A DNA stretch of 64,000 nt from Brachyspira intermedia PWS/A (lineage in GTDB: Bacteria; Spirochaetota; Brachyspiria; Brachyspirales; Brachyspiraceae), in contig NC_017243.1 of assembly GCF_000223215.1 (NCBI RefSeq), positions 2,914,001 to 2,978,000 of the forward strand. Reading direction: 5' to 3'. Numbering within the stretch: position 1 is the stretch's first letter; every line of letters starts with the position of its first letter. The translations under genes and the position numbers were made by a program. The notes below the pieces were generated by a model. That model ran no database searches. It was not told the DNA's origin and saw nothing but the letters and a program-made list of their open reading frames with translations. Positions 9,374 to 30,246 of the stretch are shown here, piece after piece.

Positions 9374-12300
9374 TTAATTATTGTTCATAGTACCTAAATA
9401 CTGCATTATCTGAAGTCTTCTGCTTTCAACATCTTTATCCAAATTAGCTATAACATCATTACTAGCAGCTAAAGGCGACATTATCCTTTTGAAGTCATTA
9501 TAAATATTTAATGCCTCTATAATTTTATTTTGTTCTATATATATATGACCTATAGCATATAAAGCAAATGCACCGTCTTGAGTAAGCTCATTAGTATATT
9601 TTGAATATGTGCTTATAGCTTCATCATACATTTTATTGTTTAGATAAATATTAGCTAAATCAAACTCTATGCCTCTTCTTTCATCTCTAGTCAAATCAGG
9701 CATTTTTAAAGTATCATTTAATATAGTTATAGAACTTGCTGTGTCGCCCAAATTAGCATAAAGTATTGATATATCTTTATTAACACCTATTATATGATCT
9801 TTGCTTCTTGCTCTTTTTTTAGCTTCCAATTTAGCCCATAAAGTTTCTTCTATATCTTGTCTGTTTTGATATATATAATTAGCATAAGAAGAATAGCTTT
9901 CAAAAGTATCTTCTTTCATAGCCTGAGCTTTAAGATTATCAGCCTGCTGTCTTGTAGTTTTTAGCTGAGCATCTATTCTAGCCATAAATTGTTTTATCTG
10001 CTGATAAGTTTGATTCTGTTCTCTTGCAGCATTTCCCATATCTTTTCCTCTATGGAAAGTTTTTTCTGCTCTTTCAAGAGTTTCTTTAGCTTTATTTAAA
10101 TATTCTGCCTCTTTATCATAAGGAGTGTCTTTAGAACGTGCTAAATATTCATAAGAAGCAGTCAAATTGAAATAAGCAGGATAAATAAGTTTTTCTAACT
10201 TTATAAGCTCTTCAAACATAGCGGCAGCTCTTTCATAATTGCCGTCCATAATAGCCTGATTTCCTATTGCAAAATATACATTAGACATATCAAAGCCTAT
10301 TGTAAGCATTCTGTCTTCTTCTTGTTTCTTTAAATCCTGAAATTCTGCTATTTTTTGATTAGCTTCTGCTCTTGTCATACCATTTTTAGCAACATCACCA
10401 TTACCCATAAAACCAAGTAATTTCTGATAAGTTTTTATTCTTCTATTATATAAATCTATTCTAGCTAAAGAATAAGAACTAACGAATATCTCTCTTGTTA
10501 GGAAGTCATAATGTGATATTTCTTCAGCAGTTCCCTGCATAGTATAGCTGTTCCAATAATCTTCTTCTGTTTTGAATTGAGGGAAAGGAAGTTCATACAT
10601 TTTTACGAAAGTTATCTCTTCATTTCCGTCATATATATTTTTTCTTGCAACCGAAATTAAACCTTCATCTAATAATGCATTTAAGTCAGCTGCTATCTTT
10701 TCATTCTCATAATCTCTTTTTAAATGCTCTTTAGCAATATCTTTATAATCATTAACAGTAAGAACTTTAAAGAACTCTAATTCATCAACTAAAGCATATT
10801 TAATAGGCTGAACTTTGAATACCAAACCATAAGCTTTGAAATAATAATCTCCAAGCCTGTAAAGTCCGTCCCTTCTCCAAGCCATATAATAAGGTCTGCC
10901 TGATTCTATAAAGTCTTTATCAACGGCATCACTAATATCTCCAAGCCATCTGCCGTCTGTTTTCATAAGGTTACCGTATATTCTTTCAAATACATTACCT
11001 TTCTGGTCATATATTTTCAAATCCGGTCTTCTTCTTTCTACCATAGTATAATATACGAGTCCGAATACTTGGTTATCTCCCCCCTCTGTGGCAAATATAG
11101 CATTGTCAGGAAGTGAGTTCATCATATTGTATGAATAGTCATGGTTACTGAAGTCTTTTGAGTTATTATTACGGCTTAAATTCATTATAAATATAGGTAT
11201 CATTATAACAAGTATTGCCGCAAGTGATATAGCATGATAAGGCTTTAATTTAGTATCCGCAGTTTCTTCAGAAGGTTTTTTCAATACATTTTTTATATTA
11301 GTATTGAAATATTCCATATACCATTGAATACCGAATCCTATTATTACAAGCATATATAAAGTTGCTGGCAAGAAGAAAACTTCAACAAATGATAAAGTTC
11401 TTACACTTGGAGGCGGATTAGTATATGCCATTAAAGATACGGCAAAACTCAAAAGTCCGAATACTGAGAATATACCTATAAACTTATTTTTCTTGAATAT
11501 CTGGAATAATCCGGGTATTAAGAATAATAAGCCTAATACTGTTAATTGAGTTTTGAATATATTTATTAAAGCAGATACCTGTTCTGGGTGAAGTATGAAG
11601 GCTGCAGCAATATCATTTCCTGAAGCTCCGTACTGTTTTCTATGTATCATACTAAATAAATAGCTTAAATTCTCCCAGCCTGAAGGTTCATTTAATTGTC
11701 CCCAGTTTAGCGGAGGCAATGCTCTGGCTCTTATAGGCATATAAGCATATATCATAACGCCTACTGCAAGCATTAAAAGCATTTTATAATATGATATTGA
11801 TATTCCTGTGATAAAGTCATTATCATTATTGAATTTATCTATTTTGCATAAGAAATATCTATATACTAAGCACCAAACAACTACTAAGAATAAAGGCCAA
11901 AATACTAAGAACATACCTTTATATAAAGTAGGATAGAATGGAGCTTTTAAATTCTGTATCATATCAGGTCTTAAATAAGAACCATTAGCAAGTGCTGTAA
12001 ATATATCGCTCATTATATTCATATCAGCGAAAGGCTTGAATATTATAGAGAATATGGAATCATTTGAAGCTACTCCAGGAGGGAAATATAAATAAGCCTC
12101 ATAATTCATAATAAATCTATAGTATCCGAAACCGCCTATAAATAATAACACTAAAAATACAAATATTGATATAAATGAAGTTTCTATATGATTGATATAT
12201 CTATCTTTATGTATCAAAAATAAAACAACGGCTATAAACAAAAGAGGGGCAAAAGCGAAAGGCAAAGTTACATGGTGATTTGCAAGTGCCACACCATACA

Positions 12301-13102
12301 AAAAGCCGAAAGCCATTAAATATTTATTTCCATAATAAGGTACTTCATCATTGGCATGCTTCCATACATTTTCAAACCAGTAAACAAGTATTAAAAGCAT
12401 AGAAGCTATTTGAAGTATATTCAAGCTGTAAACTTCTGCCATTGTAGCCTGTGCCCACATATTATCAGATATAGCAAAAGCAATGCTCGCAAAAAGTGCA
12501 GGTATCTGTACTATAGGAGAGAATCCTCTTTCAACTCTATTTTGTCCTAATACTTTTACCATAATAAGATAGAAGAAAATCATCGCTATTGCAGCACAAG
12601 TACCGGAAAATAAATTCGTTCTCCAAGCAATATTTCCAAAAGGTATATAAGTAAATAATTTGGACATCAAAGTATAGAAAGGATATCCAGGAGCATGCCC
12701 TACTCCCAAGAAGTAAGCAGCGGTTGTAAGCTCTCCATTATCACCTGCTGAAAGTGAAGGAGTTAATGTAAATAAATACAAAAAGAATGTGAAAAGAAAA
12801 GCTACAGCAGCAAATATTGCATCTATTTTTGAAAGATGATAAGGTTTAATTTCATATCTCTTATAAATAGGTTCCTGATTTGCTTTCTTAGAGAATAATT
12901 TAGAAAGTATATTTCCGCCATTTTCTTTATTTACTTTTTCTTTATTAGTTTTTGTATTATTTTTTTGACTATTTTGCAGATTATTAATATATTCTTCTAT
13001 TAACTCTCTGTCTTTTTCTAATTTTTTTGTAAGCTCATCAATGCTTTTATTTTTATAATTAGCTTTGATGTACTCTTTTTCCAGATGCGAAAGTTTTGCC
13101 AT
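9374..13102 (-). CDS. DUF2723 multi-membrane-span protein with C-terminal TPR region
   Basis: The product has 1242 residues. Residues 1-85 are a charged cytoplasmic segment with a predicted coil. From about 90 a DUF2723 domain begins (FLYLFTLTPSLSAGDNGELT, then GHAPGYPFYTLMSKLF), with about a dozen membrane helices up to residue 650. DUF2723 proteins resemble GT-C/protein-mannosyltransferase enzymes; the acidic residues of GDNGE sit where those have a catalytic Asp. A soluble extracytoplasmic region follows, and from about 890 to the end there are several TPR-like helical pairs (YERAAAMFEELIKLEK, YDEAISTYSKYTNEL, KIIEALNIYNDF). Glycosyl transfer to a protein or lipid outside the membrane is a reasonable inference but unproven. 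It is a single-gene transcript with its own terminator. Confidence 0.85.
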   Translation of the reverse strand: MAKLSHLEKEYIKANYKNKSIDELTKKLEKDRELIEEYINNLQNSQKNNTKTNKEKVNKENGGNILSKLFSKKANQEPIYKRYEIKPYHLSKIDAIFAAVAFLFTFFLYLFTLTPSLSAGDNGELTTAAYFLGVGHAPGYPFYTLMSKLFTYIPFGNIAWRTNLFSGTCAAIAMIFFYLIMVKVLGQNRVERGFSPIVQIPALFASIAFAISDNMWAQATMAEVYSLNILQIASMLLILVYWFENVWKHANDEVPYYGNKYLMAFGFLYGVALANHHVTLPFAFAPLLFIAVVLFLIHKDRYINHIETSFISIFVFLVLLFIGGFGYYRFIMNYEAYLYFPPGVASNDSIFSIIFKPFADMNIMSDIFTALANGSYLRPDMIQNLKAPFYPTLYKGMFLVFWPLFLVVVWCLVYRYFLCKIDKFNNDNDFITGISISYYKMLLMLAVGVMIYAYMPIRARALPPLNWGQLNEPSGWENLSYLFSMIHRKQYGASGNDIAAAFILHPEQVSALINIFKTQLTVLGLLFLIPGLFQIFKKNKFIGIFSVFGLLSFAVSLMAYTNPPPSVRTLSFVEVFFLPATLYMLVIIGFGIQWYMEYFNTNIKNVLKKPSEETADTKLKPYHAISLAAILVIMIPIFIMNLSRNNNSKDFSNHDYSYNMMNSLPDNAIFATEGGDNQVFGLVYYTMVERRRPDLKIYDQKGNVFERIYGNLMKTDGRWLGDISDAVDKDFIESGRPYYMAWRRDGLYRLGDYYFKAYGLVFKVQPIKYALVDELEFFKVLTVNDYKDIAKEHLKRDYENEKIAADLNALLDEGLISVARKNIYDGNEEITFVKMYELPFPQFKTEEDYWNSYTMQGTAEEISHYDFLTREIFVSSYSLARIDLYNRRIKTYQKLLGFMGNGDVAKNGMTRAEANQKIAEFQDLKKQEEDRMLTIGFDMSNVYFAIGNQAIMDGNYERAAAMFEELIKLEKLIYPAYFNLTASYEYLARSKDTPYDKEAEYLNKAKETLERAEKTFHRGKDMGNAAREQNQTYQQIKQFMARIDAQLKTTRQQADNLKAQAMKEDTFESYSSYANYIYQNRQDIEETLWAKLEAKKRARSKDHIIGVNKDISILYANLGDTASSITILNDTLKMPDLTRDERRGIEFDLANIYLNNKMYDEAISTYSKYTNELTQDGAFALYAIGHIYIEQNKIIEALNIYNDFKRIMSPLAASNDVIANLDKDVESRRLQIMQYLGTMNNN

Positions 13103-13164
13103 TTAGTTATCTACCTCTTTATTAAAATAAAAATTTTTATATCTTACTTAATTATAGTGACGTA

Positions 13165-13361
13165 TTTTAATAAATAATTTTAAGAATTAAAAGAAATATT
13201 TTTTAACAAGTAATATTTAGTTAAAAAATGCAGTCCTTTTGCTTCTTTGGGTCACCAAAAGAAGTGGGGTGCGGGGCAAAGCCCTGCAAAAATAAACTAT
13301 AGTAGATTATTATATAATAAAATCGCTTATTATTCAAGGATGTAAAAAAATATATTTTTAT
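13165..13361. repeat. Left flanking direct repeat of the radical SAM island
   Basis: About 200 bases that match 24744-24962 in the same orientation. Both start with TAAGAATTAAAA(G/T)AAATATTTTTT and end with a nearly identical block of about 50 bases (13310-13361 here, including AAAATCGCTTATTATTCAAG). This copy also contains a 60-base dispersed element (13231-13290: GCTTCTTTGGGTCACC, AAAAGAAGTGGGGTGCGGGG, CAAAGCCCTGCA) that recurs at 29830-29887 and 30090-30172. The remaining sequence up to 13466 is AT-rich with nothing else recognisable. Confidence 0.7.
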
Positions 13362-13466
13362 ACAAATAATTTCCAACCATAAAAAATATATATTAAAATA
13401 TTGATTTTAAATCTATTTTATAATTAAAAGTATGTAACATACAATATATTTAATGATTATTATATA

Positions 13467-13494
13467 TTGACTTATTTTTTTATTAGGTTATAAT
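13467..13494 (+). promoter_or_regulatory. Promoter of the precursor peptide / radical SAM operon
   Basis: TTGACT (13467-13472) and TATAAT (13489-13494) are 16 bases apart. A transcript would start near 13500 and leave a leader of about 30 bases, with GAAGG (13518-13522) 7 bases before the ATG of the precursor gene. Confidence 0.7.
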
Positions 13495-13529
13495 ATAAAT
13501 AAATATTATTAACTTGTGAAGGTATATTT

Positions 13530-13664
13530 ATGAATAATACATCATCTGAAATAGTTTTAAATGATCAGGAAGTTCAAGATTTTGTAACTTTTTTAAATGA
13601 AAAAAAAGAATTTCTTGATACAGGTTTAGGTGCATTTCATACAGATAATCATAGTAATTGGTAG
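13530..13664 (+). CDS. Putative RiPP precursor peptide, 44 residues
   Basis: A short frame that starts MNNTSSEIVLNDQEVQ, continues with an acidic helical stretch (DFVTFLNEKKEF) and ends in GAFHTDNHSNW. It is the first gene after a strong promoter and has a good ribosome binding site. It is followed at once by a radical SAM/SPASM gene whose possible TTG start overlaps its stop. A charged N-terminal part followed by a Gly/His/Asn/aromatic C-terminus is the usual leader-core layout of a ribosomally made, modified peptide. It has no Cys, so thioether (sactipeptide) or lanthionine chemistry is excluded. Likely targets are the aromatic, His or Asn residues of the last eleven (for example C-C or C-O cross-links, as in triceptides); this is inference. 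No protease site such as GG is present, although LGAF could be a cut point. Confidence 0.7.
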   Translation: MNNTSSEIVLNDQEVQDFVTFLNEKKEFLDTGLGAFHTDNHSNW

Positions 13665-14769
13665 AAATTATTGTGATTAAAAGAGATGTTATTTTTTTCG
13701 ATAAAAATAAAATAATTCATTTAATTTTAAAGCTTGCAGGTTCTTCTTGTAATATAAACTGTACTTATTGTTTTGAAAAAACTAAAAATTTGTTTTCATC
13801 TGAATCGATAAATAAAGATTTCTTAGTAGAATTTATAAATGGTATAAAAAATCAGATAGTTGTTACGCTTCATGGCGGTGAGCCTTTACTTATTGGTAAA
13901 AAAAAATTATAGAGATACTTGATTTATTATCAGAATTTTATCCAAATAAAATTATTAATATATATTTGCAAACTAATGGTATATTATTAGATGATGAATG
14001 GATATATATAATATTTGAGCAATATAAAAAATTAAATATAGAAATATCCATAAGTTTAGATGGTTCATTTGAAATGAATTCTCTAAGAATAAATTATAAT
14101 AATCAAAATACTTATAATGATGTACTTAATGCTTATAGATTATTATCTAAAAATAATATAAATGCTGGAATGCTTAGTGTAATTTCTAAACATTCATTAA
14201 ATTTATATGTTGAATATATTGAGTTGATAAAAAAAATTGATAATCTAAAATTTGTAAAAATCAATCCCCTATTTAATATGGAAAATAATAATCTAAGTAA
14301 AGATAGTATAACTCCAACTGAATTTGCACAATTTATAATAAATGTAGCAAACTTATATATAAAGGAAGAAATATATAAAAAAATAGCAATAGAACCAATA
14401 TTAAGTATGATTCAAAAAATTAATAATAAAGAATCTAAATATTGTAATTATAATAAAAATAAATGCTATCAATTTATATCTTTATATCCAAATGGATTAG
14501 TAGCACCATGTGATTGTTTTTCTAGCAGTGAATTTGAAATAAATATTGATAAAACAATATCTATTAGTGAAAATATTGTCAATGCTATTAATGAAAATAC
14601 AATTTTTAACAGCCTTATGAATGATTGTAAAAATTGTAATATATTTGATTTTTGTAATGCAGGATGCATATCACAAAGATATTACTTTAGAAATAATAAA
14701 GATTTATATGATGATTATTGTGAATCAAAAAAAATGTTATATTCATTTAGTAGTAAATTTAAGGTCTAA
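13658..14769 (+). CDS. Radical SAM/SPASM peptide maturase (one-base frameshift)
   Basis: The N-terminal part carries the [4Fe-4S] motif CNINCTYC in LAGSSCNINCTYCFEK, then LHGGEPLL; after the frameshift come LQTNGILLDD and SISLDGSFE. The C-terminus is a SPASM-type auxiliary cluster region: CYQFISLYPNGLVAPCDC, CKNCNIFDFCNAGC and a final YCESK. This pattern matches peptide-modifying enzymes of the GrrM/XyeB/FxsB type. Reading breaks at a run of nine A (13898-13906); one more A restores a frame of about 370 residues (first part ends at 13912, second resumes before 13966). The start may be TTG at 13658 or GTG at 13673. It directly follows the putative precursor and is 5 bases from the next gene. 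Substrate assignment is inference. Confidence 0.85.
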
Positions 14770-14774
14770 CTAAA

Positions 14775-16599
14775 ATGTTTATATCCGATATAATTGTTAA
14801 TGCTATATATATTAATATACCTTTTTGTCTAAGAAAATGTAGTTTTTGTCATTATGTTAATAATCTAAAATATTCATATTCAAAAGTTGAGGATTCTTAT
14901 TTTATTATATTATTAAAACAGTTAGAATATGTGTTAAAAAATATAAAAAATAATAAATTAAGTAGTATATATTTTGGAGGCGGTACTCCATCACTTTTAA
15001 ATGAACATCAAATAAACCAAATAAAAGAATTATTTGATAATTATAATATTTCATCAGAAGAAGTATCTATAGAAATATATCCGGATATATGCAACTTTGA
15101 TTATGATAATAATAATTTTTTTAATAGATTTTCAATAGGTGTACAAAGTTTTGATGACAAATTATTAAAACTTTATAACAGAAAAAATTATGATTATAAA
15201 ATCATAGAAGATATTATATATAAAATAAAAAAAATAATAATAACAATAAAGTTAATATTGATTTGATTTTCGATGAATATATTTTAGAAGATGATATAAC
15301 AAAAGCATTAAAACTATCTCCGGATTCTATAGTATTTTATCCAAACACAAAAAATAGAGGCTTAAAAAGATTGATAAATATTTATGATTCTTTAAATAAA
15401 TTATCATTTTCTGTTAAAAATTATAAACCTCTTGGAAAATCAAAATTCATATATTTAAAAGAGAATACAGAAGAATCAAATTATTCCAAAGTAGAATATC
15501 GCTATATTGGAAATATAATAGGTATAGGTCATAATAGTGTTTCTTATATAAATAATGAATCATATCTGTCTATTTTTGATGGTGAAAATTTTTATTTTAA
15601 TAAAAGAGATAGAATACCAAGATATCATAATACAATAATATCTTCGTCATTTACAGGAGTACTCAAAAATACAATTAATAAATATTTCAAATCTCTTTTA
15701 GATTGTAATTTATTTATAGAAGATGAAAATAATAATGAAGTTATATATATACCCGAATATAATTATATTTATTTCTACAAATATTTATTAGAAAATTATA
15801 ATAATAAATATGCTGAAGTTTTTATATCTAGTGTGTCATTTGGAGATTCAGATTATCATAACATAGAATATATTGTCAACAATTATATTGACGATGAAAC
15901 ACAAAATAATTTGAAAGATTTTTCAAAAGCTAATAATATATGCAATAATAACAAAGCATTTATTAGAAAAAAAGCTCCAAATAAATTCATATTAATTGAA
16001 GGTATAGATGGAAGCGGTAAAGATACATTTGCAAACTTTTTACAAAGTGAAATAAAAAAAGATTTAAATACACTAAAGATGCTCCTGTATCAATTATAGG
16101 TCAGCCATATTCCAATTTTAAATATGGCAAAGAATCAAAATCATTTATAGAAGATTTAAATAAAAAATATACCAAGCATCAAGTTATAGAATATTTAACT
16201 GAAAATAGAAAGGAATCTGAAAAATACATCAATAATCTTGGGGGCATTGTTATATGTATAAGGGGAATATTAACTGATATAGCAACATTTAATTATGCCT
16301 TTAATGAAAATACGGATAATCAATTTGGATTATGTTCAAGTTTAAAAAGAATAGATGAACTTATAATAATTGATGTAGATGAAAATGAAGCTGATATAAG
16401 AATAAAAAATAGAAATATACCAAGGACTTGGAGAGAATATTTACCTCAATTAAAATATTTTAGAGAGTTTTACATAAATCATAATTTAGATTGTATAAAT
16501 AATAAAACAATAATAATAAATGATGATTTCGAGTATTTACAAAAAATGGCAAAAATAATATCTAATAAACTCTATTTTGAGGATTCTTTTAATGGATAA
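14775..16599 (+). CDS. HemW-like radical SAM enzyme fused to a thymidylate-kinase-like domain (two frameshifts)
   Basis: Joined across two A runs (eight A at 15227-15234, seven A at 16054-16060, each apparently one base short), this is one frame of about 608 residues. Residues 1-375 resemble HemN/HemW: YINIPFCLRKCSFCHY with CxxxCxxC, YFGGGTPSLL, IGVQSFDDKLLKLYNR and NIDLIF. From about residue 410 there is a P-loop, LIEGIDGSGKDTF, typical of thymidylate kinases. Further on come GQPYSNFKYG, the region RIDELIIIDVDENEADIR and RNIPRTWREY. HemW-like proteins include class C radical SAM methyltransferases of peptide antibiotics, so methylation or another radical step is possible. I know of no described fusion of this kind. 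The third part runs past 16099 to the stop at 16597-16599. Confidence 0.78.
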
Positions 16600-17545
16600 A
16601 GGTATTACTTTAATACTTAATCTAGTTGGTAATGCATGTAATATGAATTGTTCATACTGTTATGAACATGATACAATTAAATATGATACTATAAATAATT
16701 TAAATATAGCTAAAATAAACGATGTTAAAGAGTTTTTATCTAGCTTTATTGATTATCATCATATACATATATTATTTCATGGTGGTGAACCATTATTATA
16801 TGGAAAAGATCTTATAAAAGATATTTTAAAATTTATAAAAACTAATTTTCTAAATAAATATACTATACAGATACAAACTAATGGTTTATTAATAGATGAT
16901 GATTTCATTAATATTTTTCTTGATTATAATGTACAATTATCAATATCACTTGACCCTATAGGAGATATGGACTTAAGAAAAGCTAATAATTTTGAATATA
17001 GGAAAGTAGTTATTTCAAATATTTCAAAATATATAAAAAAAATAGATACTATAGGAATAGTATCTGTTGCTCACAAATATAATATAAATTATTTTAAAGA
17101 ATTTATAGATGAACTAATAAATTATAAAATAAAATTTTTAACTATTAATAAGATAAGATATTCAACTCATAATACAGATTATTATATAACAGAAAAAGAA
17201 TATAATAAAATGCTAAAAGAGATTTTGATATATTGGATAAATAACAAAAAATACAAATCTATAGATATACAGCCATTTATATCTTTATTAACTGACAGTA
17301 AAATATGTATTTATTCGTCTGATAATAATAAATGTAAATATTTTAAAACTTTTTATAATAAAGAATATAACACTGAATATTGCAGCCATATTATTTCAAA
17401 TAAAATGCCAAATGTTGACAAGAAATGTTTGGAATGTTATATTTATGATTGGTGCGGTGGCGGATGTTTAGTCGATCAAAAAGATGAAACCTTTTGTGAA
17501 TCTAGAAAAGACTTTAAATTATTTTTGGATAAAATAAAACTATGA
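16592..17545 (+). CDS. Second radical SAM/SPASM peptide maturase
   Basis: The product has about 317 residues and an intact frame. I choose the ATG at 16592 because GAGG (16579-16582) lies 9 bases before it; an upstream TTG at 16577 would put the start inside that site. The iron-sulfur motif is GNACNMNCSYCYEH, followed by LFHGGEPLLYGKD, IQTNGLLIDDD and SISLDPIGD. A Cys-rich SPASM-like tail follows: CKYFKTF, CSHII, CLECYIYDWCGGGC and FCESRKDF. It is a paralogue of the genes at 13658 and 23414. Its start overlaps the end of the kinase fusion by 8 bases, and its stop overlaps the start of the UvrA-like gene (ATGA), so the genes are translationally coupled. Confidence 0.88.
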   Translation: MDKGITLILNLVGNACNMNCSYCYEHDTIKYDTINNLNIAKINDVKEFLSSFIDYHHIHILFHGGEPLLYGKDLIKDILKFIKTNFLNKYTIQIQTNGLLIDDDFINIFLDYNVQLSISLDPIGDMDLRKANNFEYRKVVISNISKYIKKIDTIGIVSVAHKYNINYFKEFIDELINYKIKFLTINKIRYSTHNTDYYITEKEYNKMLKEILIYWINNKKYKSIDIQPFISLLTDSKICIYSSDNNKCKYFKTFYNKEYNTEYCSHIISNKMPNVDKKCLECYIYDWCGGGCLVDQKDETFCESRKDFKLFLDKIKL

Positions 17546-20500
17546 AAATTAATAATCTAATAGCAAATAACATAATAAATTTAAATAAAAATATTGATTT
17601 TGATAAATCAATTTCTATATCAGGGCTTTCTGGTTCAGGAAAAACTACATTTTGTAAAGTAGTAAGTGATGAGTCTTTAAAACGTATAGTTACTCTTTTA
17701 CCAAAGGTAGAATATAGATTTTTATTTTCTGAATTTCTCAAAACAAACTTTTCTGCTCAAAATATTACTAATATACCATTAACTTTTTTTTTAGAAAAAA
17801 CTTCTACCTCTTCAAATGTTAGATCAACAGTTGGAACTTATACACCTATATTTAAAACTATAAGAAGTTTATTTGCTAAAAAATATAAATGCCCTTCTGA
17901 ATTTTTCTCATTTAATAATTCTAAATTTTGGTGTAAAAAATGCAAAGGAAGAGGCTATAATGCAATGGTGGAATGTAAAGAATGTAATTCTGAAAGATAT
18001 TCTGATGAAATAAAAAAATATACTATAACTTGTCATGATAAAGAATATAATATTATTGATTTTAATAAAATGAATATATTTAAATTGATAGAGTTATCTG
18101 ATGAATTGGGTTTTAATAAAAGTATTAAGAAAATGCTTGATAATATGATAAAATTGAATATTGGATATTTATCATTAGATAGAATAGTTAGTACATTATC
18201 AGGCGGTGAAACTACAAGATTATTATTATCAGAATTTATTACATACTCTGTCAATTCTCTTATAATAGCAGATGAATTATCTATAGGATTAGATGAAGAT
18301 AGTCTATATAATATGCTTGAACAGATTGGTGATCTATCAAACAATAATCAATTATGGCTTATAGATCATAATAATATAGTTATTAATTCAACACAAGAAA
18401 AAATTTATTTTGGACCAAAAAGCGGAAAATACGGAGGAAAAATAGTAGATGAATCTCCTAGACCAAAAGAAGAATTTTTTGAAATAAATGAGTCTGAAGC
18501 AAAAGATTATTATGTTTTCAGCGATTTAGAAAAACGTAATTTAAAAATAAAAGAATTAAAGATTCCTGAAAACAGACTAATATCAATAGTTGGAGAATCA
18601 GGATGCGGAAAATCTACTCTTGTAAATGATTGCATATCGTCTGTTTTTAATAAATTATACAAAAATGCAAAACTAATTTTAATAGGTCAAAATAGAAATC
18701 AATCTATAACTTCCAAGTCCACTATTGAAACATTTTTGGATATAAAAAATAATCTATCAAAAATTAAAGATTTGAATAAAAATGCCCCTATAGAAGACAT
18801 TATAAACATGATAGATACAAATGAGAAGGCATATAAATACCTATCTTCTTTAATAGATTTAGGTTTAGGTTATCTGAATTTAAACAGAAAAATACAAACT
18901 CTATCTACAGGTGAATTCCAGTGTGTGCATTTAATTTCAGAATTATTTATAGATTTGAATAAAAAAACTCTATTCATATTTGACGAACCTTCAAAAGGTC
19001 TTTCACAAAATATTTTAAATAAATTCATGAAATATATACATAATATATTGAACAATAAAAATATCACTGTAATTATGATAGAACATAATAGCTATATAAT
19101 AAAACTAAGTGATTTCATAATAGATTTTGGTAAAAGAACAGATAATATAATATCTCACTTAAATATACTTTCTAATTCAAAATACCATGATAATAAAAAG
19201 AAAAATAATAAAAATATTATGATAAAATCATCAATTTCTAATAAATCTGGAATAGAGTATTTAAAAGATGAAGAAGTTGAAGATTATTTTAAAAAATCAG
19301 AAAATATATTTAAAGGAGGAATATTAAAGAATATATCACAAACTGCTAGATGGATATATGGTGATTATTTTTCAGATGAAGTCATACCTGAAATAGCAAT
19401 AGATTTTGAAAGTCAGCTTTACAGTAAAAATACATTTTTATATGAAACATTAGGTATAGTAAACAGAATTATTTCTTTGGGGGATAATGTTCTTATAGAT
19501 GATATAGATATTTTTGATTATTATAATGAAGAAAATTTATGTAAATGCTGCCGCGGAAATTCAGTAATAGATTCTTTTAATATAAATAACATTATAAAAA
19601 ATAAAGATTCAAATCTTTGGAATGATCTATTTGAAGATGATATAATGAAAGCATTAAAAAATTATAATTTTCAAAAAATAAAATTTTTATTTAAAGAAAT
19701 AAAAAAAGATTCTAAATTGGATTTGAATAAAGATTTTTCAAAAATGAACCCTGATGAAATAAATACTTTTTTATACGGATATTGGAAAACAGATTTTTAT
19801 GATTCAGACAAAAAGACTAGAAGATATTGGAAAGGAATAATTTTCTTAATAAAAAAATATATGAAACAGTCTAAGAGCAAATTAAAGGAAATTATAAATA
19901 GTTCTAAAGAAGAAATAATATGTCCTATATGTAATGGCAGTATATTAGGTCATAATAATAAATTTTATATAAAGAATAAAGATATAAGAGATATTTTATC
20001 TTCTAGTATATCAGAAAATATGAACATATTATCTGATATAGAGCCTATAAATAGTGTAATAGATATACTAGGCAAAGATATAAAATTAAATTATGATGTA
20101 TCTAATTTGCCTCAGGATAAGCAGGCTAAATTAAAATTATTAGAAATATACTACTCTAGTTTTTACGGATTTTATATAGTACTAAAAAATATAAATCCAT
20201 TTAAAGATTATGCAAAGAAAATAATAGAAAATATAGCAATAAATAATAAAGTTATAATTTGTGATTATAAAAACATTAATGACACTAAAGAAAATATACT
20301 AAACAATGATTTTTCAAATTATAAAATTAATTCATTTGTTTATGAATTATTTGGATTTAAAAAAATATCAACTGAAATTAATAAAATAATAAAAAGCTAT
20401 CCATGTGAACATTGTAATGGAAAAAAATTAATTAGAGAAGAAGGAGTCTTCGAAGGTATAGATGCATATGAAGTACCTTGTGACATATGCGGTGAAACAG

Positions 20501-20694
20501 GTATATCGGAAAAGGGGTTAAAACAAATAATAGATGGATATTCTGTAGATACTTGGATTAATGGAACTATATCTGATGTTATAAAAAATAACATTAATAT
20601 AAAAGACATAAAAGATATAAAAATTTATTCTAAAATTAAAGATTTAAATAAAAAAGAATTAATGAATTTACTGAATTATTTAAAGGAAAAATAA
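17542..20694 (+). CDS. UvrA-like ATPase with a long unknown C-terminal domain
   Basis: The product has 1050 residues and an intact frame. The first 540 form a tandem ABC ATPase of the UvrA type. Walker A GLSGSGKTT is at 28-36, and RSTVGTYTPI is near 93-104. A zinc-finger block (CKKCKGRG, ECKEC, RYSDEI) sits around 131-160, and the signature LSGGE near 220 precedes Walker B SLIIADELS. The second Walker A, GESGCGKST, is near 351, followed by a degenerate signature LSTGEF near 455 and Walker B FIFDEPSKGL near 480. The last 500 residues have no UvrA counterpart and carry several Cys pairs (CKCC, CPIC, CEHC, CDICGETG), the last two resembling a DnaJ-type zinc finger. UvrA paralogues in antibiotic clusters, such as DrrC, give self-resistance to DNA-binding products. 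That role, or a mechanistic one, is possible here. It overlaps both neighbours by 1-4 bases. Confidence 0.85.
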   Translation: MKINNLIANNIINLNKNIDFDKSISISGLSGSGKTTFCKVVSDESLKRIVTLLPKVEYRFLFSEFLKTNFSAQNITNIPLTFFLEKTSTSSNVRSTVGTYTPIFKTIRSLFAKKYKCPSEFFSFNNSKFWCKKCKGRGYNAMVECKECNSERYSDEIKKYTITCHDKEYNIIDFNKMNIFKLIELSDELGFNKSIKKMLDNMIKLNIGYLSLDRIVSTLSGGETTRLLLSEFITYSVNSLIIADELSIGLDEDSLYNMLEQIGDLSNNNQLWLIDHNNIVINSTQEKIYFGPKSGKYGGKIVDESPRPKEEFFEINESEAKDYYVFSDLEKRNLKIKELKIPENRLISIVGESGCGKSTLVNDCISSVFNKLYKNAKLILIGQNRNQSITSKSTIETFLDIKNNLSKIKDLNKNAPIEDIINMIDTNEKAYKYLSSLIDLGLGYLNLNRKIQTLSTGEFQCVHLISELFIDLNKKTLFIFDEPSKGLSQNILNKFMKYIHNILNNKNITVIMIEHNSYIIKLSDFIIDFGKRTDNIISHLNILSNSKYHDNKKKNNKNIMIKSSISNKSGIEYLKDEEVEDYFKKSENIFKGGILKNISQTARWIYGDYFSDEVIPEIAIDFESQLYSKNTFLYETLGIVNRIISLGDNVLIDDIDIFDYYNEENLCKCCRGNSVIDSFNINNIIKNKDSNLWNDLFEDDIMKALKNYNFQKIKFLFKEIKKDSKLDLNKDFSKMNPDEINTFLYGYWKTDFYDSDKKTRRYWKGIIFLIKKYMKQSKSKLKEIINSSKEEIICPICNGSILGHNNKFYIKNKDIRDILSSSISENMNILSDIEPINSVIDILGKDIKLNYDVSNLPQDKQAKLKLLEIYYSSFYGFYIVLKNINPFKDYAKKIIENIAINNKVIICDYKNINDTKENILNNDFSNYKINSFVYELFGFKKISTEINKIIKSYPCEHCNGKKLIREEGVFEGIDAYEVPCDICGETGISEKGLKQIIDGYSVDTWINGTISDVIKNNINIKDIKDIKIYSKIKDLNKKELMNLLNYLKEK

Positions 20695-21659
20695 TGTTAA
20701 CATACGATTTAAAAGTTGGATATTCATGCAACAACAGATGTAAGCATTGTGTTATAGCTGACAGCAGTGATAAACTTGCAGATAATAATATAAATATAGA
20801 TTTAACTACAGAAGAATGTTTAAAACAAATAGATGATCAAGTAAAAAATGGAATCAATAAAATAGTTTTGACCGGCGGAGAAGTTACAATAAGAAAAGAT
20901 TTTGATACTTTGATAAATAAATGCGTTGAAAATAATTTATCTATAACAATACAAACAAATGGAAGAAGATTAAATAATGATTTTATTTTAAATTCAATAA
21001 AAGATGTAGATGATATAAAATTTGTTGTGGCATTGCATGGAGCAAAATCAAATACTCATGATACAATCACTTGTGTAAAAGGAAGTTTTGATGAAACTTG
21101 CAAAGGTATTTCAGCAATTATTGATTATAAAAAAATTCTTATATTGAAAGTAGTAATATCCAAAATAAATGCTGAGGAACTTCCAGATATTGTTACTCTT
21201 GCAAATAGTTTAGGAGTAAAATACATATGCTTTGCTTTCCCACATGGACAAGGAAATGCTAGGAAGAATTTTGAAGAGGTTATACCAAAATATTCTTATT
21301 TGCAGCCTATTTTAGATAAAGTCGTTTCCAATTCAATAAAATATAAAATTAATATAGAATTTGAAGCAATTCCTTTTTGTATACTTCATAAATACATGCA
21401 TTTAGTAGGAGAATTAAAATATTTAAAAAGTGAAGAAATATGTTCTCAAGTACATGAAGAAGTTTTTGATTGGAATGAAATAAGACATTCTATAAAAAGA
21501 AAAGGAGATAATTGCCAAAAATGTGCGTTATATTCCATATGCGAAGGACCTTGGTCTGAATATGTAGAAGCTTTTGGTAGTGATGAATTAAAACCTATAA
21601 TTGTTTCAGAAGAACAAAAAAATAAAATATTAGAAGCATTAAAACAATTTACATTTTAA
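20694..21659 (+). CDS. Radical SAM enzyme, MoaA/NifB-like subclass
   Basis: The product has 321 residues. The cluster motif is GYSCNNRCKHC (CxxxCxxC); then LTGGEVTIRKDFD, TIQTNGRRLNN and VALHGAKSNTHD follow. The C-terminus has a Cys-rich signature CQKCALYSICEGPWSEYVEAFG, with a preceding CILHKY and EEICSQ that could help bind an auxiliary cluster. It differs from the three SPASM paralogues of the island in its TGGE (not HGGE) motif and its C-terminal pattern. Its ATG overlaps the stop of the UvrA-like gene by one base, so it is part of the same operon. It ends convergently with the TPR gene, sharing 4 bases. Substrate unknown; action on the same precursor is inferred from position only. Confidence 0.85.
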   Translation: MLTYDLKVGYSCNNRCKHCVIADSSDKLADNNINIDLTTEECLKQIDDQVKNGINKIVLTGGEVTIRKDFDTLINKCVENNLSITIQTNGRRLNNDFILNSIKDVDDIKFVVALHGAKSNTHDTITCVKGSFDETCKGISAIIDYKKILILKVVISKINAEELPDIVTLANSLGVKYICFAFPHGQGNARKNFEEVIPKYSYLQPILDKVVSNSIKYKINIEFEAIPFCILHKYMHLVGELKYLKSEEICSQVHEEVFDWNEIRHSIKRKGDNCQKCALYSICEGPWSEYVEAFGSDELKPIIVSEEQKNKILEALKQFTF

Positions 21660-23404
21660 GCAAGAGGTGCTTTTGAAATAGTAAATTTTAATCCATAAGG
21701 AGTTCTAATATCATTTTCTAAATCTTTTTGAAATCCTTCAATTAATGAAACAGGATCTTTCACTTTTGGACCTATTATAACTTCTCTTAATGCATCTCTA
21801 TCAAATATATTTAAATAATCTTTGTATAGAGTTTTACTATCTTCATCATATTGAACATCATTATCTGACATTTCTGCCACTTGCAAAATTCTCATTTCCT
21901 GTTCTTCTACAAAAGCCGCATCTTTTATAAGATATTGTATATTAATTAATAATTTATATAAAATTTTTAATTTTTCTCTTTCTGTATTGTTTTTTATAAA
22001 AATTTCAAAAATTTTATTAAATATATACCCTATTCTATTTTTTAATTTTTCTTCTTCTTTAAGACTGTTATCATTATTCCACTTATAATTGTTTGTTTCA
22101 TTTAAACCTATTTCTATAGCCTGATAATTAGAAGGAGTTTGATTGAATATTAATTTATTTTCATAATGGTCATAATACATAATACTGTAAATAGGTAAAA
22201 CATTATTTTTTTTATCTGATATAGGTGTAGATGGATTTTTAAAAAACACATCAAAAAAATTTTTATTAAATACTAAACAAACACCTGTTCCCTCATTTTT
22301 ATCATCTTTGCTGTATTTAGTGTTTTTACCATATAATCTAAACATAGTTAGAGAATCTCTGACTCTTGTAAAAGAAGTTTGTAAAGCAGCAAATGATATA
22401 TTTTTCTTTTTTACACCAAAATTATTTTCCATTTCATCATAATTTATATTTATTTCTTTTTTATATAATATATCATTAATTATTTTACCTTCTCTATAAT
22501 CATTAACTCTTGATACGCTGAACATTTTTAATTTAGATTTATTTTCTTTATATAATTTCATAAATACATCTATGGATATATATGTACATAATTTATCTAT
22601 ATTTCCTTTTTTTCTTACAGATAATAAATCAAGCATAATATACTGCAATATCCATAATTTTTTATATTCATATATATTATTTACATCTGGTTTAACAATA
22701 TAATTAAAATATTCTTCTTTTTCCCATATAATGTCAAGATTACAAATTTTATCTATAATATTTGTAAAACTATTATCAAATTTATCATTTACTTTATCTA
22801 AATAAAATATTATATTATGAACAATGAAATTTATATTTATAATATTACTATACTTATCTAAAATTTTTGTATCTTCAAATATATCAAAAAAACTATTAAT
22901 CTCTTTTTCGCATATACATTTAGATATAATAACATTACAATATCCTATAAAAGCATTTGTATATATATCTTCGCTATCACTATTCATAGCTCTTTTATAA
23001 TCATAAATAATTTTATTTAGATCATCATTATTATTGTTATATTTATTATGTAATGCATTTGCTTTATATACATGATATTTATAATCTTTATCATTACCAT
23101 TATTTATTATCTCATTATATATTTCTATTGCCTTATCATATGATGACTCCTCATTATATACTAATGCTAGTAATTTTTTAGATTTATCATATGTATTATT
23201 TTGTAATAATTTTTCTATTTTATCAAAAAAAGATTTTTTTTCATTTTCATCTGAAAGTAAAGCTAATTGGTAATATACTTTAGATATATAATAGTTTATT
23301 TCATTTTGATCATTTTGATTATTTTTTTTCTCATCTTCTAGAAATTTTATACATTCATCATATTTTTTACTATAAAATAATTCATTAAATTTACATAATA
23401 GCAT
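21656..23404 (-). CDS. TPR protein with DUF2971-like C-terminal domain
   Basis: The product has 582 residues. Residues 1-150 contain TPR-like helical pairs (YSKKYDECIKFLEDEK, SSYDKAIEIYNEIINN, DLNKIIYDYKRAMN). From about residue 310 the pattern fits DUF2971: SFAALQTSFTRVRDSLTMFRLYG, GTGVCLVFN, the EEQEMRILQVAE segment and REVIIGPKV. This matches the usual order CFS..DN..MW.HYA, GVCLEF, YE.E.R and IILG. DUF2971 proteins are of unknown biochemistry and are often found near mobile or defence genes. AGGAGG at 23410-23415 precedes the ATG at 23404 by 5 bases and overlaps the likely stop of the radical SAM gene upstream, so the two are coupled. The DUF2971 assignment is from pattern memory and needs a profile search. 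Confidence 0.72.
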   Translation of the reverse strand: MLLCKFNELFYSKKYDECIKFLEDEKKNNQNDQNEINYYISKVYYQLALLSDENEKKSFFDKIEKLLQNNTYDKSKKLLALVYNEESSYDKAIEIYNEIINNGNDKDYKYHVYKANALHNKYNNNNDDLNKIIYDYKRAMNSDSEDIYTNAFIGYCNVIISKCICEKEINSFFDIFEDTKILDKYSNIININFIVHNIIFYLDKVNDKFDNSFTNIIDKICNLDIIWEKEEYFNYIVKPDVNNIYEYKKLWILQYIMLDLLSVRKKGNIDKLCTYISIDVFMKLYKENKSKLKMFSVSRVNDYREGKIINDILYKKEININYDEMENNFGVKKKNISFAALQTSFTRVRDSLTMFRLYGKNTKYSKDDKNEGTGVCLVFNKNFFDVFFKNPSTPISDKKNNVLPIYSIMYYDHYENKLIFNQTPSNYQAIEIGLNETNNYKWNNDNSLKEEEKLKNRIGYIFNKIFEIFIKNNTEREKLKILYKLLINIQYLIKDAAFVEEQEMRILQVAEMSDNDVQYDEDSKTLYKDYLNIFDRDALREVIIGPKVKDPVSLIEGFQKDLENDIRTPYGLKFTISKAPLA

Positions 23405-23413
23405 AAATACCTC

Positions 23414-24468
23414 CTAACAATTATTAATATAGGACAATATATATTTTTTATTTCTATTCTATACTGACAATATTCTTCTAATAATTTTTCATTATATTTT
23501 CTATACATATTTCTAACAGATGGGCATCCACCTGAACAAATTTCCAACATATTACATGATTTACAATATTCTATTTCTTTTTCTATATATTCTGGATATG
23601 AATTAAACAAAGATTTTGCATTTTCATCTGTATGCATGGCATCACAAAACATTATAGATTTATCAGGATAAACTGAATAAAATTTATTACATTTCAAATT
23701 AAATTCTTTATTATTATTATTGAAACTTTCTATTATATCTGTAATAGGATCTAATTTAAATTTCTTATAAGTTTTATATTTTATCATATAATTAAATGCA
23801 TCTTTTAGGGATTTTAAATATTGAAGCGGTGTAATTGAATATTCTTTTATTCCATTATTATCAATATCAAAACATGGATTTAACTTTAAAAATTTAATGT
23901 TGTTGAAGTTAGAGAAATATTCTATAATATCATACATTAAATTATATGATTTTGAATTAATAGTTGCAATACATCTAAATTCTATATTTCTCTTATCTAT
24001 TAAATTTAAAAATTCATTTATTTTATTAAAAGCTTTTTCTTTATTGAATAACCTAAATATACTTGCCTGATAATTACCATCTAAACTTATACTTAAACTT
24101 AAATTATCTTTATTTTCATAGAAAAAATCTACCCAACTTTCATCTAAATATCCATTTGTTTGTATAGCAGGCTTATATATAAATTCAGACTTTTTTATAA
24201 AATTTATTATACTAGAAATATTATCCTTACCAGATAAAGTAGGTTCGCCACCGTGAAATATTATATGTGTATCTCTTGGCAGACCATCAATAATTTCTAA
24301 TATATTATTAAGATTAAAAGTATTTTTTTCTTTATAAAAATCTTTTATTATCTCAGAACAATATAAACAGTTCATATTACATATATTACCATTTAATTTT
24401 AGTAAAATGGTTTTAGGATCAAAAATACTATGTGAACAAACTTCCATAAATACATTATAATATGTCAT
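23414..24468 (-). CDS. Third radical SAM/SPASM peptide maturase (frameshift at its end)
   Basis: The motifs are LNGNICNMNCLYC, IFHGGEPTLSGKD, AIQTNGYLDE and SISLDGNY. The SPASM-like tail is CNKFYSVYPDKSIMFCDA, CKSCNMLEICSGGC and YCQYR. It is a paralogue of the genes at 13658 and 16592 but on the opposite strand. The uninterrupted frame runs on to 23347, with a hydrophobic tail overlapping the next gene by 58 bases. Adding one base to the T6 run at 23444-23449 instead ends the protein in YILSYINNC at a TAG (23414-23416) just before the AGGAGG of the next gene. That is a much better fit, so I use it. The start may be ATG 24468 or ATG 24447; neither has a clear binding site, and the uninterrupted upstream codons to 24564 look non-coding. 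Confidence 0.8.
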
Positions 24469-24481
24469 AATGAATTTGCAA
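24454..24481 (-). promoter_or_regulatory. Possible promoter giving a leaderless start for the third SPASM gene
   Basis: On the minus strand, TTGCAA (24476-24481) and TATAAT (24454-24459) are 16 bases apart. TATAAT is followed by GTATTT and the ATG at 24447, so a transcript would begin almost at that ATG. In such AT-rich DNA this may be chance. Confidence 0.35.
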
Positions 24482-24743
24482 TAATTTTTATAAATCAATA
24501 TAAATATTTTAAAAAAATATGTATTAATTAATAGAAAAATGTAATATATATATAGTAAAATCAATTTTTTAATAAAAGGAATTAATTAAAAGTAATACAA
24601 CTTAGTTATACTAATATCTACCTATCACTTATAATAAATATAAAAATTAGAATTATTAAAATCCTTTATTTTACAGTTTTACTATCTGTACGTTAGACTT
24701 ATTCTAATAATATACTATTTATGTTTATAAATAAAGTAAAATA

Positions 24744-24962
24744 TTTTAAGAATTAAAATAAATATTTTTTGGCAAATAGTTTTAAGTTAAAAAACACAGT
24801 ATTTTTAATTCTATCAGTAGGTGGTCATCACTGATACCTATGGAACGCAATATGTTGGAAAAATAAGTTGTATACGGCACAAAGCCTAGCAAAATTAACT
24901 ATATTATATTGTTATATAATAAAATCGCTTATTATTCAAGGATGTAAAAAATATATTTTTAT
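24744..24962. repeat. Right flanking direct repeat of the radical SAM island
   Basis: Same orientation as 13165-13361. It begins TTTTAAGAATTAAAATAAATA and ends with the shared block at 24912-24962 (AAAATCGCTTATTATTCAAG and following), which differs from the left copy by one A. The middle part (24790-24890) is a diverged copy of the 60-base element seen on the left. The sequence from 24482 to 24743 is AT-rich and contains no second precursor-like frame that I can find. Confidence 0.65.
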
Positions 24963-25044: not shown

Positions 25045-25527
25045 ATGAACTTCTTAAAAACGAATAGATTAACTATTATACTAATATTCATTATAATTTC
25101 TTATATATTTTATAATGAATTTATAAAAAATAATACCAATAAAGAAATTAACATTTATAATTTAAATTATATAGTAGAAGATAACTATATAATAGAATAT
25201 AATTATAATACAGACTCTGATATTGAATATCAAGACATAAGAAGATACAGAAGTGATGTTGATCTTGACCTTGAAGAAGACAGAGTGTTTATTATGTTCA
25301 CAGGTTCTCTGATCATAGGTTTTTTACTTAGTTTTATTTTATTATCAAAAAATAGATTACCTAAAAAAGAATTAATTGCTGCCAAAATAATACTCATTGT
25401 ATTTGTTATAATCATTGGAATAATTATTTTTATCAATTATGAGAATATAAAAAACATATTGGAGTATTTATCTTTACCTATAGGCTTTATAATAGGCTTT
25501 GTATTGGGAAGATTATTATTTAAATAA
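25045..25527 (+). CDS. Small membrane protein, unknown family (paralogue of 26034-26618)
   Basis: The product has 160 residues. There is a membrane helix at about 9-25 (LTIILIFIIISYIFYNEF), an extracytoplasmic Asn/Tyr/acidic segment with DIRRYRSDVDLDLEED near 70-85, then three helices to the end (FIMFTGSLIIGFLL, IILIVFVIIIGIIIF, LPIGFIIGFVLGRLLF). AGGA is 8 bases before the ATG. The gene at 26034 shares IIIS(Y/F)IFY(N/D)E near the start and an EIRR motif before the second helix, so they are diverged duplicates. I recognise no known family. It is a single-gene unit followed by repeats. Confidence 0.65.
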   Translation: MNFLKTNRLTIILIFIIISYIFYNEFIKNNTNKEINIYNLNYIVEDNYIIEYNYNTDSDIEYQDIRRYRSDVDLDLEEDRVFIMFTGSLIIGFLLSFILLSKNRLPKKELIAAKIILIVFVIIIGIIIFINYENIKNILEYLSLPIGFIIGFVLGRLLFK

Positions 25528-25555
25528 AAATAATATATTTGTTTAAATTTTATTC

Positions 25556-25900
25556 TAATTCCCCGCCCTTTAAGAATTGTTAATCTATTTTGCTATTAAA
25601 CTTTATTCAGATTTAAAAGTTTAGATTATATTTTTAGCACCCGCCCAAGCTTTATTTAAAATTAAAAATTTACCAACCGCACGGTGAACAAAATTTTTAA
25701 TATAATTAGATTTAAATTTTAAATATATCTATGTTTAAAACTTAGTTCTGCGTGCGGTGAAATGGCAACAAATTTAAAAAAATCTTGGGTGGGTAGCTAA
25801 AATAACAGATAGTATTAAAAATAAAGATAATACAAAAATGACAGTGATAATAAAAAGCCTAAAGGGTGGGCAAATGTAATTAAGTTTTAAAACTTATTTT
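25556..25900. repeat. Long nested inverted repeat between small membrane protein genes
   Basis: Three pairs of arms nest around the centre. CCCGCCCTTTA (near 25562) faces TAAAGGGTGGGC (near 25860). AGCACCCGCCCAAGC (near 25637) faces CTTGGGTGGGTAGCT (near 25785). CCGCACGGTGA (near 25677) faces GCGTGCGGTGA (near 25750). Related blocks occur at 32210-32650 and 57661-57890. The remainder up to 26033 is AT-rich, with a ribosome binding site AGAGG before the next gene. Confidence 0.55.
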
Positions 25901-26033
25901 AAGGATTTATTTACCATGCGTTAATTATTATTTTATTAATACATTATGTAGGTACTAACAAATAACTTGAAATAAAAACCAATTTATGATAAATATGTAT
26001 TAATTTGCTTAAGCGTTTTTTAAAGAGGTTTAT

Positions 26034-26618
26034 ATGAAGATTAGTATATTAGCGGTTGTATTAATTATTATTTCTTTTATATTTTATGATGAAATGACAA
26101 AACATAATTATAATGTATCTAATGTAAATGTAATAGAAAAAAATGAAGAAAGCAACATTTATAATGGAAACTATATAGCAAGTGATGATGATATTATTTT
26201 AGAAAATAGTTATGATTTCAATAATAGTGTAGAAACTAAAGAAATTCGCCGCAACTACCTCAGATGGAGAGATAGAGAGCATCCTAACGTAGATTTTGAA
26301 GAGGATTCAAAAGATTTATATGTGAGATTAATAATAATATTTATGGTAGGATGTGCTATTATAGGTGTTTTAATAGATATACTTTTTTTCAAAAACGCCT
26401 CTTATAAATTTAATATTATTGTACTTGCTGTAATTCTTGTAATAAGTTCAATTATTATTTATAAAATACATGAAAACTTGGCTATACTTAATATGCGGGG
26501 AAGTACAGAAAGCATATTAGAATTATTAGCCTTCTTTTTCGGTGGTATAATATCATTTATAACATTGTCAATTAGTAAATACCTTAGATCTAAAGATAAT
26601 AAAAAAAATAATGAATAA
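26034..26618 (+). CDS. Small membrane protein, unknown family (paralogue of 25045-25527)
   Basis: The product has 194 residues. There is an N-terminal helix (ILAVVLIIISFIFYDEM), an acidic, Asn-rich extracytoplasmic loop ending in ETKEIRRNYLRWRDREH, then three helices (LIIIFMVGCAIIGVLIDILFF, IIVLAVILVISSIIIY and LLAFFFGGIISFITL) and a basic tail SKDNKKNNE. The layout equals that of the 160-residue protein upstream. AGAGG precedes the ATG by 8 bases. Function unknown; the two genes are separated by a nested inverted repeat, and I see no shared promoter. Confidence 0.65.
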   Translation: MKISILAVVLIIISFIFYDEMTKHNYNVSNVNVIEKNEESNIYNGNYIASDDDIILENSYDFNNSVETKEIRRNYLRWRDREHPNVDFEEDSKDLYVRLIIIFMVGCAIIGVLIDILFFKNASYKFNIIVLAVILVISSIIIYKIHENLAILNMRGSTESILELLAFFFGGIISFITLSISKYLRSKDNKKNNE

Positions 26619-26763
26619 TTATAAAGATTTTATGCTTGTATGACTAATGCATAAACTTTTATAATATTCATTTTTCTGTGTGCATAAAAAATTATAAAAA
26701 TATAGAAGTTGATAAAATTAATTAGCTATACAAAATTAAGAAATTATATTTTTGTCATTATAT

Positions 26764-27396: not shown

Positions 27397-27562
27397 AAAT
27401 ATTTATAATATCTCCTTAATTCTTAAATATATTTGCGAGTAGTAATTCCTGCTGCTATACTCAAATATTCTTTGTAAGTTATAATATTTTAACATAAAGA
27501 AAGCAAATATAGTAATTGCAATCCATAAAAATGAAAAAAATTAATTATTGACTCCTTATTAT

Positions 27563-27923: not shown

Positions 27924-27950
27924 AATTGCATTATATTTTACTCTATATAT

Positions 27951-28484: not shown

Positions 28485-28639
28485 TTTTAAGCCTTTATAG
28501 ATATAATGATTAGAAAAATATAAAGACAATACTTTTTTATTATAAAAAAGATTTTTATATAGGCAATAAAACTGTATTGTGTAAATTAATAAATGTCTAA
28601 TTAAATAGACTTTTATTTTTCATAATCCTAAATATATTT

Positions 28640-29485: not shown

Positions 29486-29536
29486 TTTTATTTAACTACT
29501 CTTTAATTATCATATAAAGTTTTTCAATTCTAATGT

Positions 29537-30235: not shown

Positions 30236-30246
30236 TGCTAATAAAT

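What the first reader, a model, noticed from the sequence alone, without database searches (positions are those of the whole stretch)
13530..13664. Cys-free precursor peptide ending in GAFHTDNHSNW
The short frame has its own promoter, a good ribosome binding site, a charged N-terminal half and a C-terminal tail rich in His, Asn and aromatic residues. Cys-dependent chemistry is excluded. Tails of aromatic or His plus Asn/Ser/Asp are substrates for cyclophane-forming (triceptide) SPASM enzymes; HSN could be such a three-residue unit. The specific cross-link is speculation.
Basis: partly seen in the sequence, partly recalled or inferred. Interest (0 to 1): 0.8.

Follow-up and report, generated by a model that had tools for sequence, protein, structure and literature searches.

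The report
Radical-SAM peptide island in Brachyspira
A gut spirochaete carries a foreign 11.6-kb gene island that starts with a 44-residue peptide ending in HTDNHSNW and continues with five radical-enzyme genes and a DNA-repair-like ATPase; it most likely encodes an undescribed ring-stapled peptide that may act on DNA, although two of the enzyme genes look interrupted in this genome.

Summary
A Cys-free 44-codon frame lies at 13530-13664 with an 11/12 promoter match and GAAGG 7 nt before ATG. It opens an 11.6-kb, 20% GC island (about 13310-24912). The island is bounded by a 51-52 bp direct repeat and is absent from the same site in two close relatives. Behind the peptide lie rSAM/SPASM1, a HemN-like rSAM fused to a nucleotide-kinase-like domain, rSAM/SPASM2, a UvrA-like ABC ATPase and an HxsC-like rSAM, with rSAM/SPASM3 on the other strand. 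One other Brachyspira species (of 26) has a related cluster at another locus. There a 50-aa frame in the same place ends CWGNYAKYNKGY, i.e. WGN/YAK/YNK units. The leaders are only weakly alike (shuffle p about 0.03) and the cores differ. SPASM rSAMs and HxsC-like enzymes related to the island's also flank phage tail-like proteins packed with HxN/YxN units; more distant ones flank HxD arrays. I read the peptide as a RiPP precursor with three-residue aromatic/His-x-Asp/Asn cross-linking units (HTD, HSN). The cross-link is unproven. The UvrA-like gene suggests self-protection against a DNA-acting product (inference). rSAM1 and the HemN-kinase gene are interrupted at poly-A runs in this 454-sequenced genome, so production here is uncertain.

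The parts
13310..13361 (.). Left copy of the 51-52 bp direct repeat bounding the island (TTATATAATAAAATCGCTTATTATTCAAGGATGTAAA...)
   Evidence: One copy in the empty site of G009 (L240), two in the window
13467..13494 (+). Promoter-like site TTGACT-16-TATAAT
   Evidence: 11/12 consensus match
13518..13522 (+). Ribosome binding site GAAGG, 7 nt before ATG
   Evidence: read directly from sequence
13530..13664 (+). Precursor peptide, 44 aa, acidic leader, core GAFHTDNHSNW with units HTD and HSN
   Evidence: no family match in Pfam, NCBIfam, PHROGs
13658..14769 (+). rSAM/SPASM1, anSME/DynA/YhhB-like; reading frame interrupted at the A-run near 13900
   Evidence: 36% identical to the intact G011 enzyme
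14775..16599 (+). HemN/HutW-like rSAM with a C-terminal thymidylate-kinase-like domain; frame interrupted near 15210 and 16060
16592..17545 (+). rSAM/SPASM2, YhhB/DynA-like
   Evidence: NCBIfam YhhB 82.9 bits (cut-off 445), best solved folds anSME and the leader-bound maturase ChlB
17542..20694 (+). UvrA-like ABC ATPase, two intact Walker A/signature/Walker B sets
   Evidence: 32% to the G011 counterpart
20694..21659 (+). HxsC-like rSAM (nearest model HxsC4, 108 bits)
21656..23404 (-). DUF2971 protein, island cargo of unknown relation to the peptide
23347..24468 (-). rSAM/SPASM3, 34% identical to rSAM1 and 32% to rSAM2; no precursor found in front of it
24912..24962 (.). Right copy of the direct repeat; end of the island

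Best explanation
The 44-aa frame is a RiPP precursor carried by a horizontally acquired island. An acidic N-terminal leader (about residues 1-33) recruits the island's SPASM radical SAM enzymes. They join the side chains of His37-Thr38-Asp39 and His41-Ser42-Asn43 as i,i+2 three-residue rings (His ring carbon to beta-carbon of Asp/Asn, as in His-triceptides), possibly with Phe36 or Trp44 also modified. The HxsC-like and HemN-like/kinase enzymes add further changes, and the UvrA-like ATPase protects the host from the product. Shown here: the frame, its signals, the gene order, the island and its empty site, homology of the enzymes, and a related cluster with its own short frame. Inferred: leader/core division, the cross-link and its positions, the role of each enzyme, immunity. 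Unknown: whether this genome still makes the product, because rSAM1 and the HemN-kinase gene are frame-interrupted.
For: Frame, promoter and RBS. rSAM/SPASM genes nearest to anSME, DynA and YhhB models, with the SPASM Cys pattern. Island with direct repeats and empty site in G009 and G004; GC 0.20-0.26 against 0.30-0.32 in flanking genes. G011 cluster L022: 50-aa frame with GGAGG, 9 bp before the rSAM/SPASM gene (36%), then HxsC-like (30%), methyltransferase and UvrA-like (32%), at another chromosomal place; its tail CWGNYAKYNKGY holds three [WY]x[NK] units, the only one of 145 frames there with three. Phage contigs with HxsC-like enzymes 32-38% identical to the window's flank proteins with 17 and 21 [HYFW]xN units against 2.6 and 7.1 in shuffles. 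Thermus phage phiMa_29 holds 53 HxD against 10.4 and lies next to an rSAM gene. Known i,i+2 His and Trp cyclophanes (PMC11002830).
Against: No rSAM here reaches any NCBIfam equivalog cut-off (for example YhhB 82.9 against 445). The two precursors share only 20% identity. rSAM1 and the HemN-kinase gene are interrupted. No exporter or protease was recognised in the island. A link between HxN/HxD-rich phage proteins and cross-linking is itself inference. Only two clusters were found.
Confidence: 0.5

Rival explanations
1. It is a RiPP precursor, but the SPASM enzymes do other chemistry on it (dehydrogenation, epimerisation, C-C or C-N links with other spacing as in darobactin and dynobactin), and the H-x-D/H-x-N units are not closed i,i+2 rings.
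For: DynA and DarE models score close to YhhB for rSAM1 and rSAM2; the anSME fold is the nearest solved one; five rSAM genes suggest several steps.
Against: The i,i+2 spacing of [HYW] to [NDK] recurs in G011 and in the phage arrays.
Confidence: 0.25
2. The island is decaying: enzymes interrupted, peptide frame a relic, no product made.
For: Three frame breaks in 2.2 kb, all in rSAM1 and HemN-kinase; only 2 of 26 Brachyspira genomes have such a cluster.
Against: rSAM2, UvrA-like, HxsC-like and the peptide are open although the three enzyme genes hold A-runs of 7-8; the breaks sit at A-runs of 7-9 and the genome was read by 454 FLX at 14x with an estimated 1.5 errors per 10 kb (PMC3163572).
Confidence: 0.3
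3. Defence island: rSAM plus nucleotide-kinase-like domain make modified nucleotides as prokaryotic viperins do; the short frame is incidental.
For: PADLOC pVip scores 67 bits for rSAM2 and 38 for the HxsC-like enzyme; viperins can be paired with kinases; DUF2971 cargo.
Against: NCBIfam viperin model 61 bits against a cut-off of 180, below YhhB and DynA; rSAM2 has a SPASM C-terminus with CX2CX5CX3C; peptide maturases precede viperin in the fold search.
Confidence: 0.08
4. The frame is a chance or regulatory upstream frame, not a precursor.
For: A frame of this length with an SD-like triplet arises in about 1% of shuffles, without it in 6%; no homologue of the peptide found by sequence.
Against: A second species has a similar-sized frame with its own RBS in the same position.
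Confidence: 0.1

Closest known systems
Triceptides / three-residue cyclophane RiPPs (XncB, OscB, YhhB, HaaB)
   Same: Short precursor before an rSAM/SPASM gene; aromatic or His at i and Asn, Asp or Lys at i+2 in the core; YhhB and DynA are among the nearest models
   Different: No model reached its cut-off; five rSAM genes, a UvrA-like and a kinase-like gene; cross-link not shown
His-Xaa-Ser (Hxs) systems, HxsB/HxsC
   Same: HxsC-like rSAM with a SPASM rSAM; His-x-polar units in the substrate
   Different: Single short peptide instead of an HxsA repeat protein; TIGR03977 90 bits against 268; HxsC4 108 against 500
Dynobactin/darobactin
   Same: Maturases score next to YhhB; Cys-free aromatic/His core
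   Different: No core match, no recognised transporter or protease genes
UvrA-like self-resistance proteins (Ecm16, DrrC)
   Same: UvrA-like ATPase in a biosynthetic cluster; the window copy lacks the UvrB-binding segment
   Different: Third UvrA-like module; the G011 copy keeps the UvrB-binding segment; resistance untested

Membership tests
Triceptide RiPP | rSAM/SPASM enzyme next to a short precursor | tested here: met
Triceptide RiPP | Core with aromatic/His(i)-x-(i+2) units | tested here: met
   HTD and HSN; WGN, YAK and YNK in G011
Triceptide RiPP | Maturase recognised as a characterised 3-CyFE family by curated model | tested here: not met
   YhhB 82.9 against 445 for rSAM2; all such models below cut-off
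Triceptide RiPP | C-C link between ring carbon of residue i and beta-carbon of i+2 | not testable with these tools
   needs MS/NMR
His-Xaa-Ser system | HxsC at equivalog cut-off and HxsA repeat protein | tested here: not met
   TIGR03977 90 bits against 267.9; no repeat protein in the island
Sactipeptide/ranthipeptide | Cys donor in the core | tested here: not met
   no Cys in the peptide
UvrA-like self-resistance protein | Two intact ABC ATPase sites | tested here: met
UvrA-like self-resistance protein | UvrB-binding domain and its zinc module absent | tested here: inconclusive
   missing in the window copy, present in the G011 copy
UvrA-like self-resistance protein | Confers resistance to the cluster's DNA-binding product | not testable with these tools
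   needs assay
Prokaryotic viperin | Viperin model at cut-off, no SPASM domain | tested here: not met
   61 bits against 180; SPASM Cys motif present

The most novel reading that the evidence does not exclude
A His-based cyclophane RiPP that binds DNA and is paired with a UvrA-like self-protection ATPase, whose H-x-D/H-x-N substrate code is shared with a class of phage tail proteins carrying dozens of such units beside radical SAM genes. If so, rSAM stapling of His-x-Asp/Asn serves both peptide antibiotics and phage adhesins.
Probability: 0.2. Interest if true: 0.85.

Novelty: new variant of a known kind. Interest (0 to 1): 0.58.

Why it matters
A 2014 survey of anaerobes listed only azole-type RiPP clusters for Brachyspira and other spirochaetes (PMC4289311). 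Among the papers found here, UvrA-like genes appear in clusters for DNA-binding drugs (PMC10413001, PMC10192343); a search for UvrA-like, radical SAM and RiPP together returned one paper, on enterococcal proteomics, with single mentions of each. If the reading is right, the combination points to a peptide class with a new target, and the His-x-Asp/Asn unit becomes a searchable substrate code for rSAM enzymes, including those of phages, whose many rSAM genes were explained as metabolic boosters in Campylobacter phages (PMC2853527).

Tried and rejected
UvrA-like profile in 391 genomes of the class of a Lachnospiraceae genome: only scores in the canonical UvrA range, up to 426 bits, two candidates scored per genome. 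Plasmid search with the HxsC-like protein: the best-looking hit (Agathobacter) had an unrelated neighbourhood. Structure of rSAM2 was of low confidence (pLDDT 61), used only for fold class. Sactipeptide and viperin readings rejected on features.

Full report
Origin. The window is G000:C2:2914001-2978000 of a 3,308,048-base, two-contig genome. From memory this equals Brachyspira intermedia PWS/A (chromosome plus a 3.2-kb plasmid); the genome paper is PMC3163572. The identification is an inference; no tool named the genome.

The frame. At 13530-13664 there is a 44-codon frame without Cys, preceded by GAAGG (7 nt) and a TTGACT-16-TATAAT promoter match. In dinucleotide shuffles of the 563-bp intergenic stretch, 6% gave such a frame and 1.1% one with an SD-like triplet. 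No Pfam, NCBIfam or PHROG family matches it. Two Hx[ND] units in the last 15 residues occur in no other of 276 frames of the window.

The genes behind it. rSAM/SPASM1 (13658-14769) matches anaerobic sulfatase maturase, DynA, DarE and YhhB models. Next come a HemN/HutW-like rSAM running into a thymidylate-kinase-like domain (14775-16599), rSAM/SPASM2 (16592-17545; YhhB and DynA best), a UvrA-like ABC protein (17542-20694) and an HxsC-like rSAM (20694-21659). On the other strand lie a DUF2971 protein and rSAM/SPASM3. All equivalog scores are below NCBIfam's curated cut-offs, so none is a member of a named equivalog. Fold search puts rSAM2 nearest anSME and the leader-bound maturase ChlB (weak model), and the HxsC-like enzyme nearest SkfB and SuiB (pLDDT 74), both peptide maturases.

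The island. In G009 and G004, the flanking conserved genes (98% identical on the left, 94-95% on the right) are 5.5 and 4.5 kb apart instead of 18 kb. The DNA from about 13361 to 24912 is missing there, and the window carries two copies of a 51-52 bp repeat where the empty site has one. Island genes are 20-26% GC, flanking genes 30-32%. So the peptide and all these genes arrived, or were lost, as one unit.

The second cluster. G011 alone among the other Brachyspira genomes searched (26 in all) has a related cluster. It has a 50-aa frame with GGAGG, the SPASM enzyme 9 bp later (36%), an HxsC-like enzyme (30%), a methyltransferase and a UvrA-like protein of 1268 aa (32%), between unrelated neighbours. 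The frame ends ELACWGNYAKYNKGY. The leaders align slightly better than shuffles (143 of 5000 reach the score). The cores differ, but both consist of aromatic/His-x-polar units. The peptide is not conserved in sequence, the enzymes are moderately conserved, and the layout is conserved.

Independent support for the unit. Searching viral contigs with the SPASM enzymes and then the HxsC-like enzymes gave four contigs of 159-201 kb with dense rSAM arrays and HxsC-like enzymes 32-38% identical to the window's. Beside the rSAM genes lie tail-like proteins with 17 and 21 [HYFW]xN units against 2.6 and 7.1 in shuffles in two of them, 10 against 4.3 in the third, and 13 HxS against 5.0 in the fourth. 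A fifth contig (L103) has two proteins with 39 and 34 HxD units, including HSD/HTD/HSN strings, around two rSAM genes. Thermus phage phiMa has 53 HxD in 342 residues, next to an rSAM gene. His(i)-to-i+2 cyclophanes are established chemistry (YhhB: His-Arg; HaaB and ScaB: His-Ala; OscB: Trp-Asn/Asp; PMC11002830). I therefore regard HTD and HSN as the probable modified units. This is inference by association: phage substrates and the window peptide are not homologous, and no cross-link has been measured in either.

UvrA-like gene. Both clusters hold one. Two ATPase sites are intact in each. The canonical Brachyspira UvrA scores about 340 bits against the two-row profile and lies elsewhere. UvrA-like proteins in clusters for echinomycin, daunorubicin and mithramycin protect or are thought to protect the producer, and lack the UvrB-binding domain (PMC10192343, PMC10413001). 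The window copy lacks that segment, the G011 copy has it. A DNA-acting product with self-protection is the simplest reading, but not tested.

Interruptions. rSAM1 is broken once and the HemN-kinase gene twice, always at runs of 7-9 A. The published genome was read by 454 FLX at 14x with an estimated 1.5 errors per 10 kb, a method weak on homopolymers (own knowledge). Three breaks in 2.2 kb is more than that average predicts, while other genes of the window hold A-runs of 7-8 without a break. Read error, transcriptional slippage or true decay cannot be told apart here.

Verdict. A real RiPP-type precursor candidate (I give about 0.75 to precursor of an rSAM RiPP, 0.4 to three-residue rings at HTD/HSN, 0.3 to DNA as target) in a previously undescribed spirochaete island, as far as the searches here reach. 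It is a new variant of a known kind.

Noticed in passing
L050:6845-7768, L051:10062-10790, L065:6454-7188 (IMG/VR contigs of 178-201 kb): Phage tail-like proteins packed with YxN/HxN units inside arrays of rSAM genes, including HxsC-like and, in L050 and L051, HemN-like enzymes; probably cross-linked structural proteins.
   Followed up: partly
L103:5252-6448 and 11330-12616; L224 (Thermus phage phiMa) 5989-7017: Proteins with 34-53 HxD units next to rSAM genes; the rSAM proteins themselves end in HxD units (HGDYTDHGDAPHGDHWDG in phiMa_28).
   Followed up: partly
L209:1219-1959: HxS array protein (13 HxS) followed by six to seven rSAM genes in a 159-kb viral contig: a phage relative of the His-Xaa-Ser idea.
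   Followed up: partly
L223 and Campylobacter phages CP220, CPt10, CP21: Distant HxsC-like rSAM genes in phages with 11-12 rSAM genes, explained in 2010 as metabolic; tail proteins not checked here for HxN/YxN arrays.
   Followed up: no
G000:C2:1643228-1648225 and the same in other Brachyspira: The chromosomal UvrA of Brachyspira is a double-length frame of about 1940-1960 codons with two UvrA units.
   Followed up: no
window 32869-37056 (-): DUF262-like genes (named from memory) cut into several overlapping frames: further apparent frame breaks in accessory genes of this genome.
   Followed up: no
window 13161-13400, 24860-24962, 29810-29887, 30125-30170: Dispersed short repeat (85-88% identical copies) at the island ends and nearby.
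   Followed up: partly
window 25045-30822: Family of small predicted membrane proteins in tandem, with copy number differing in G009 and G004.
   Followed up: no
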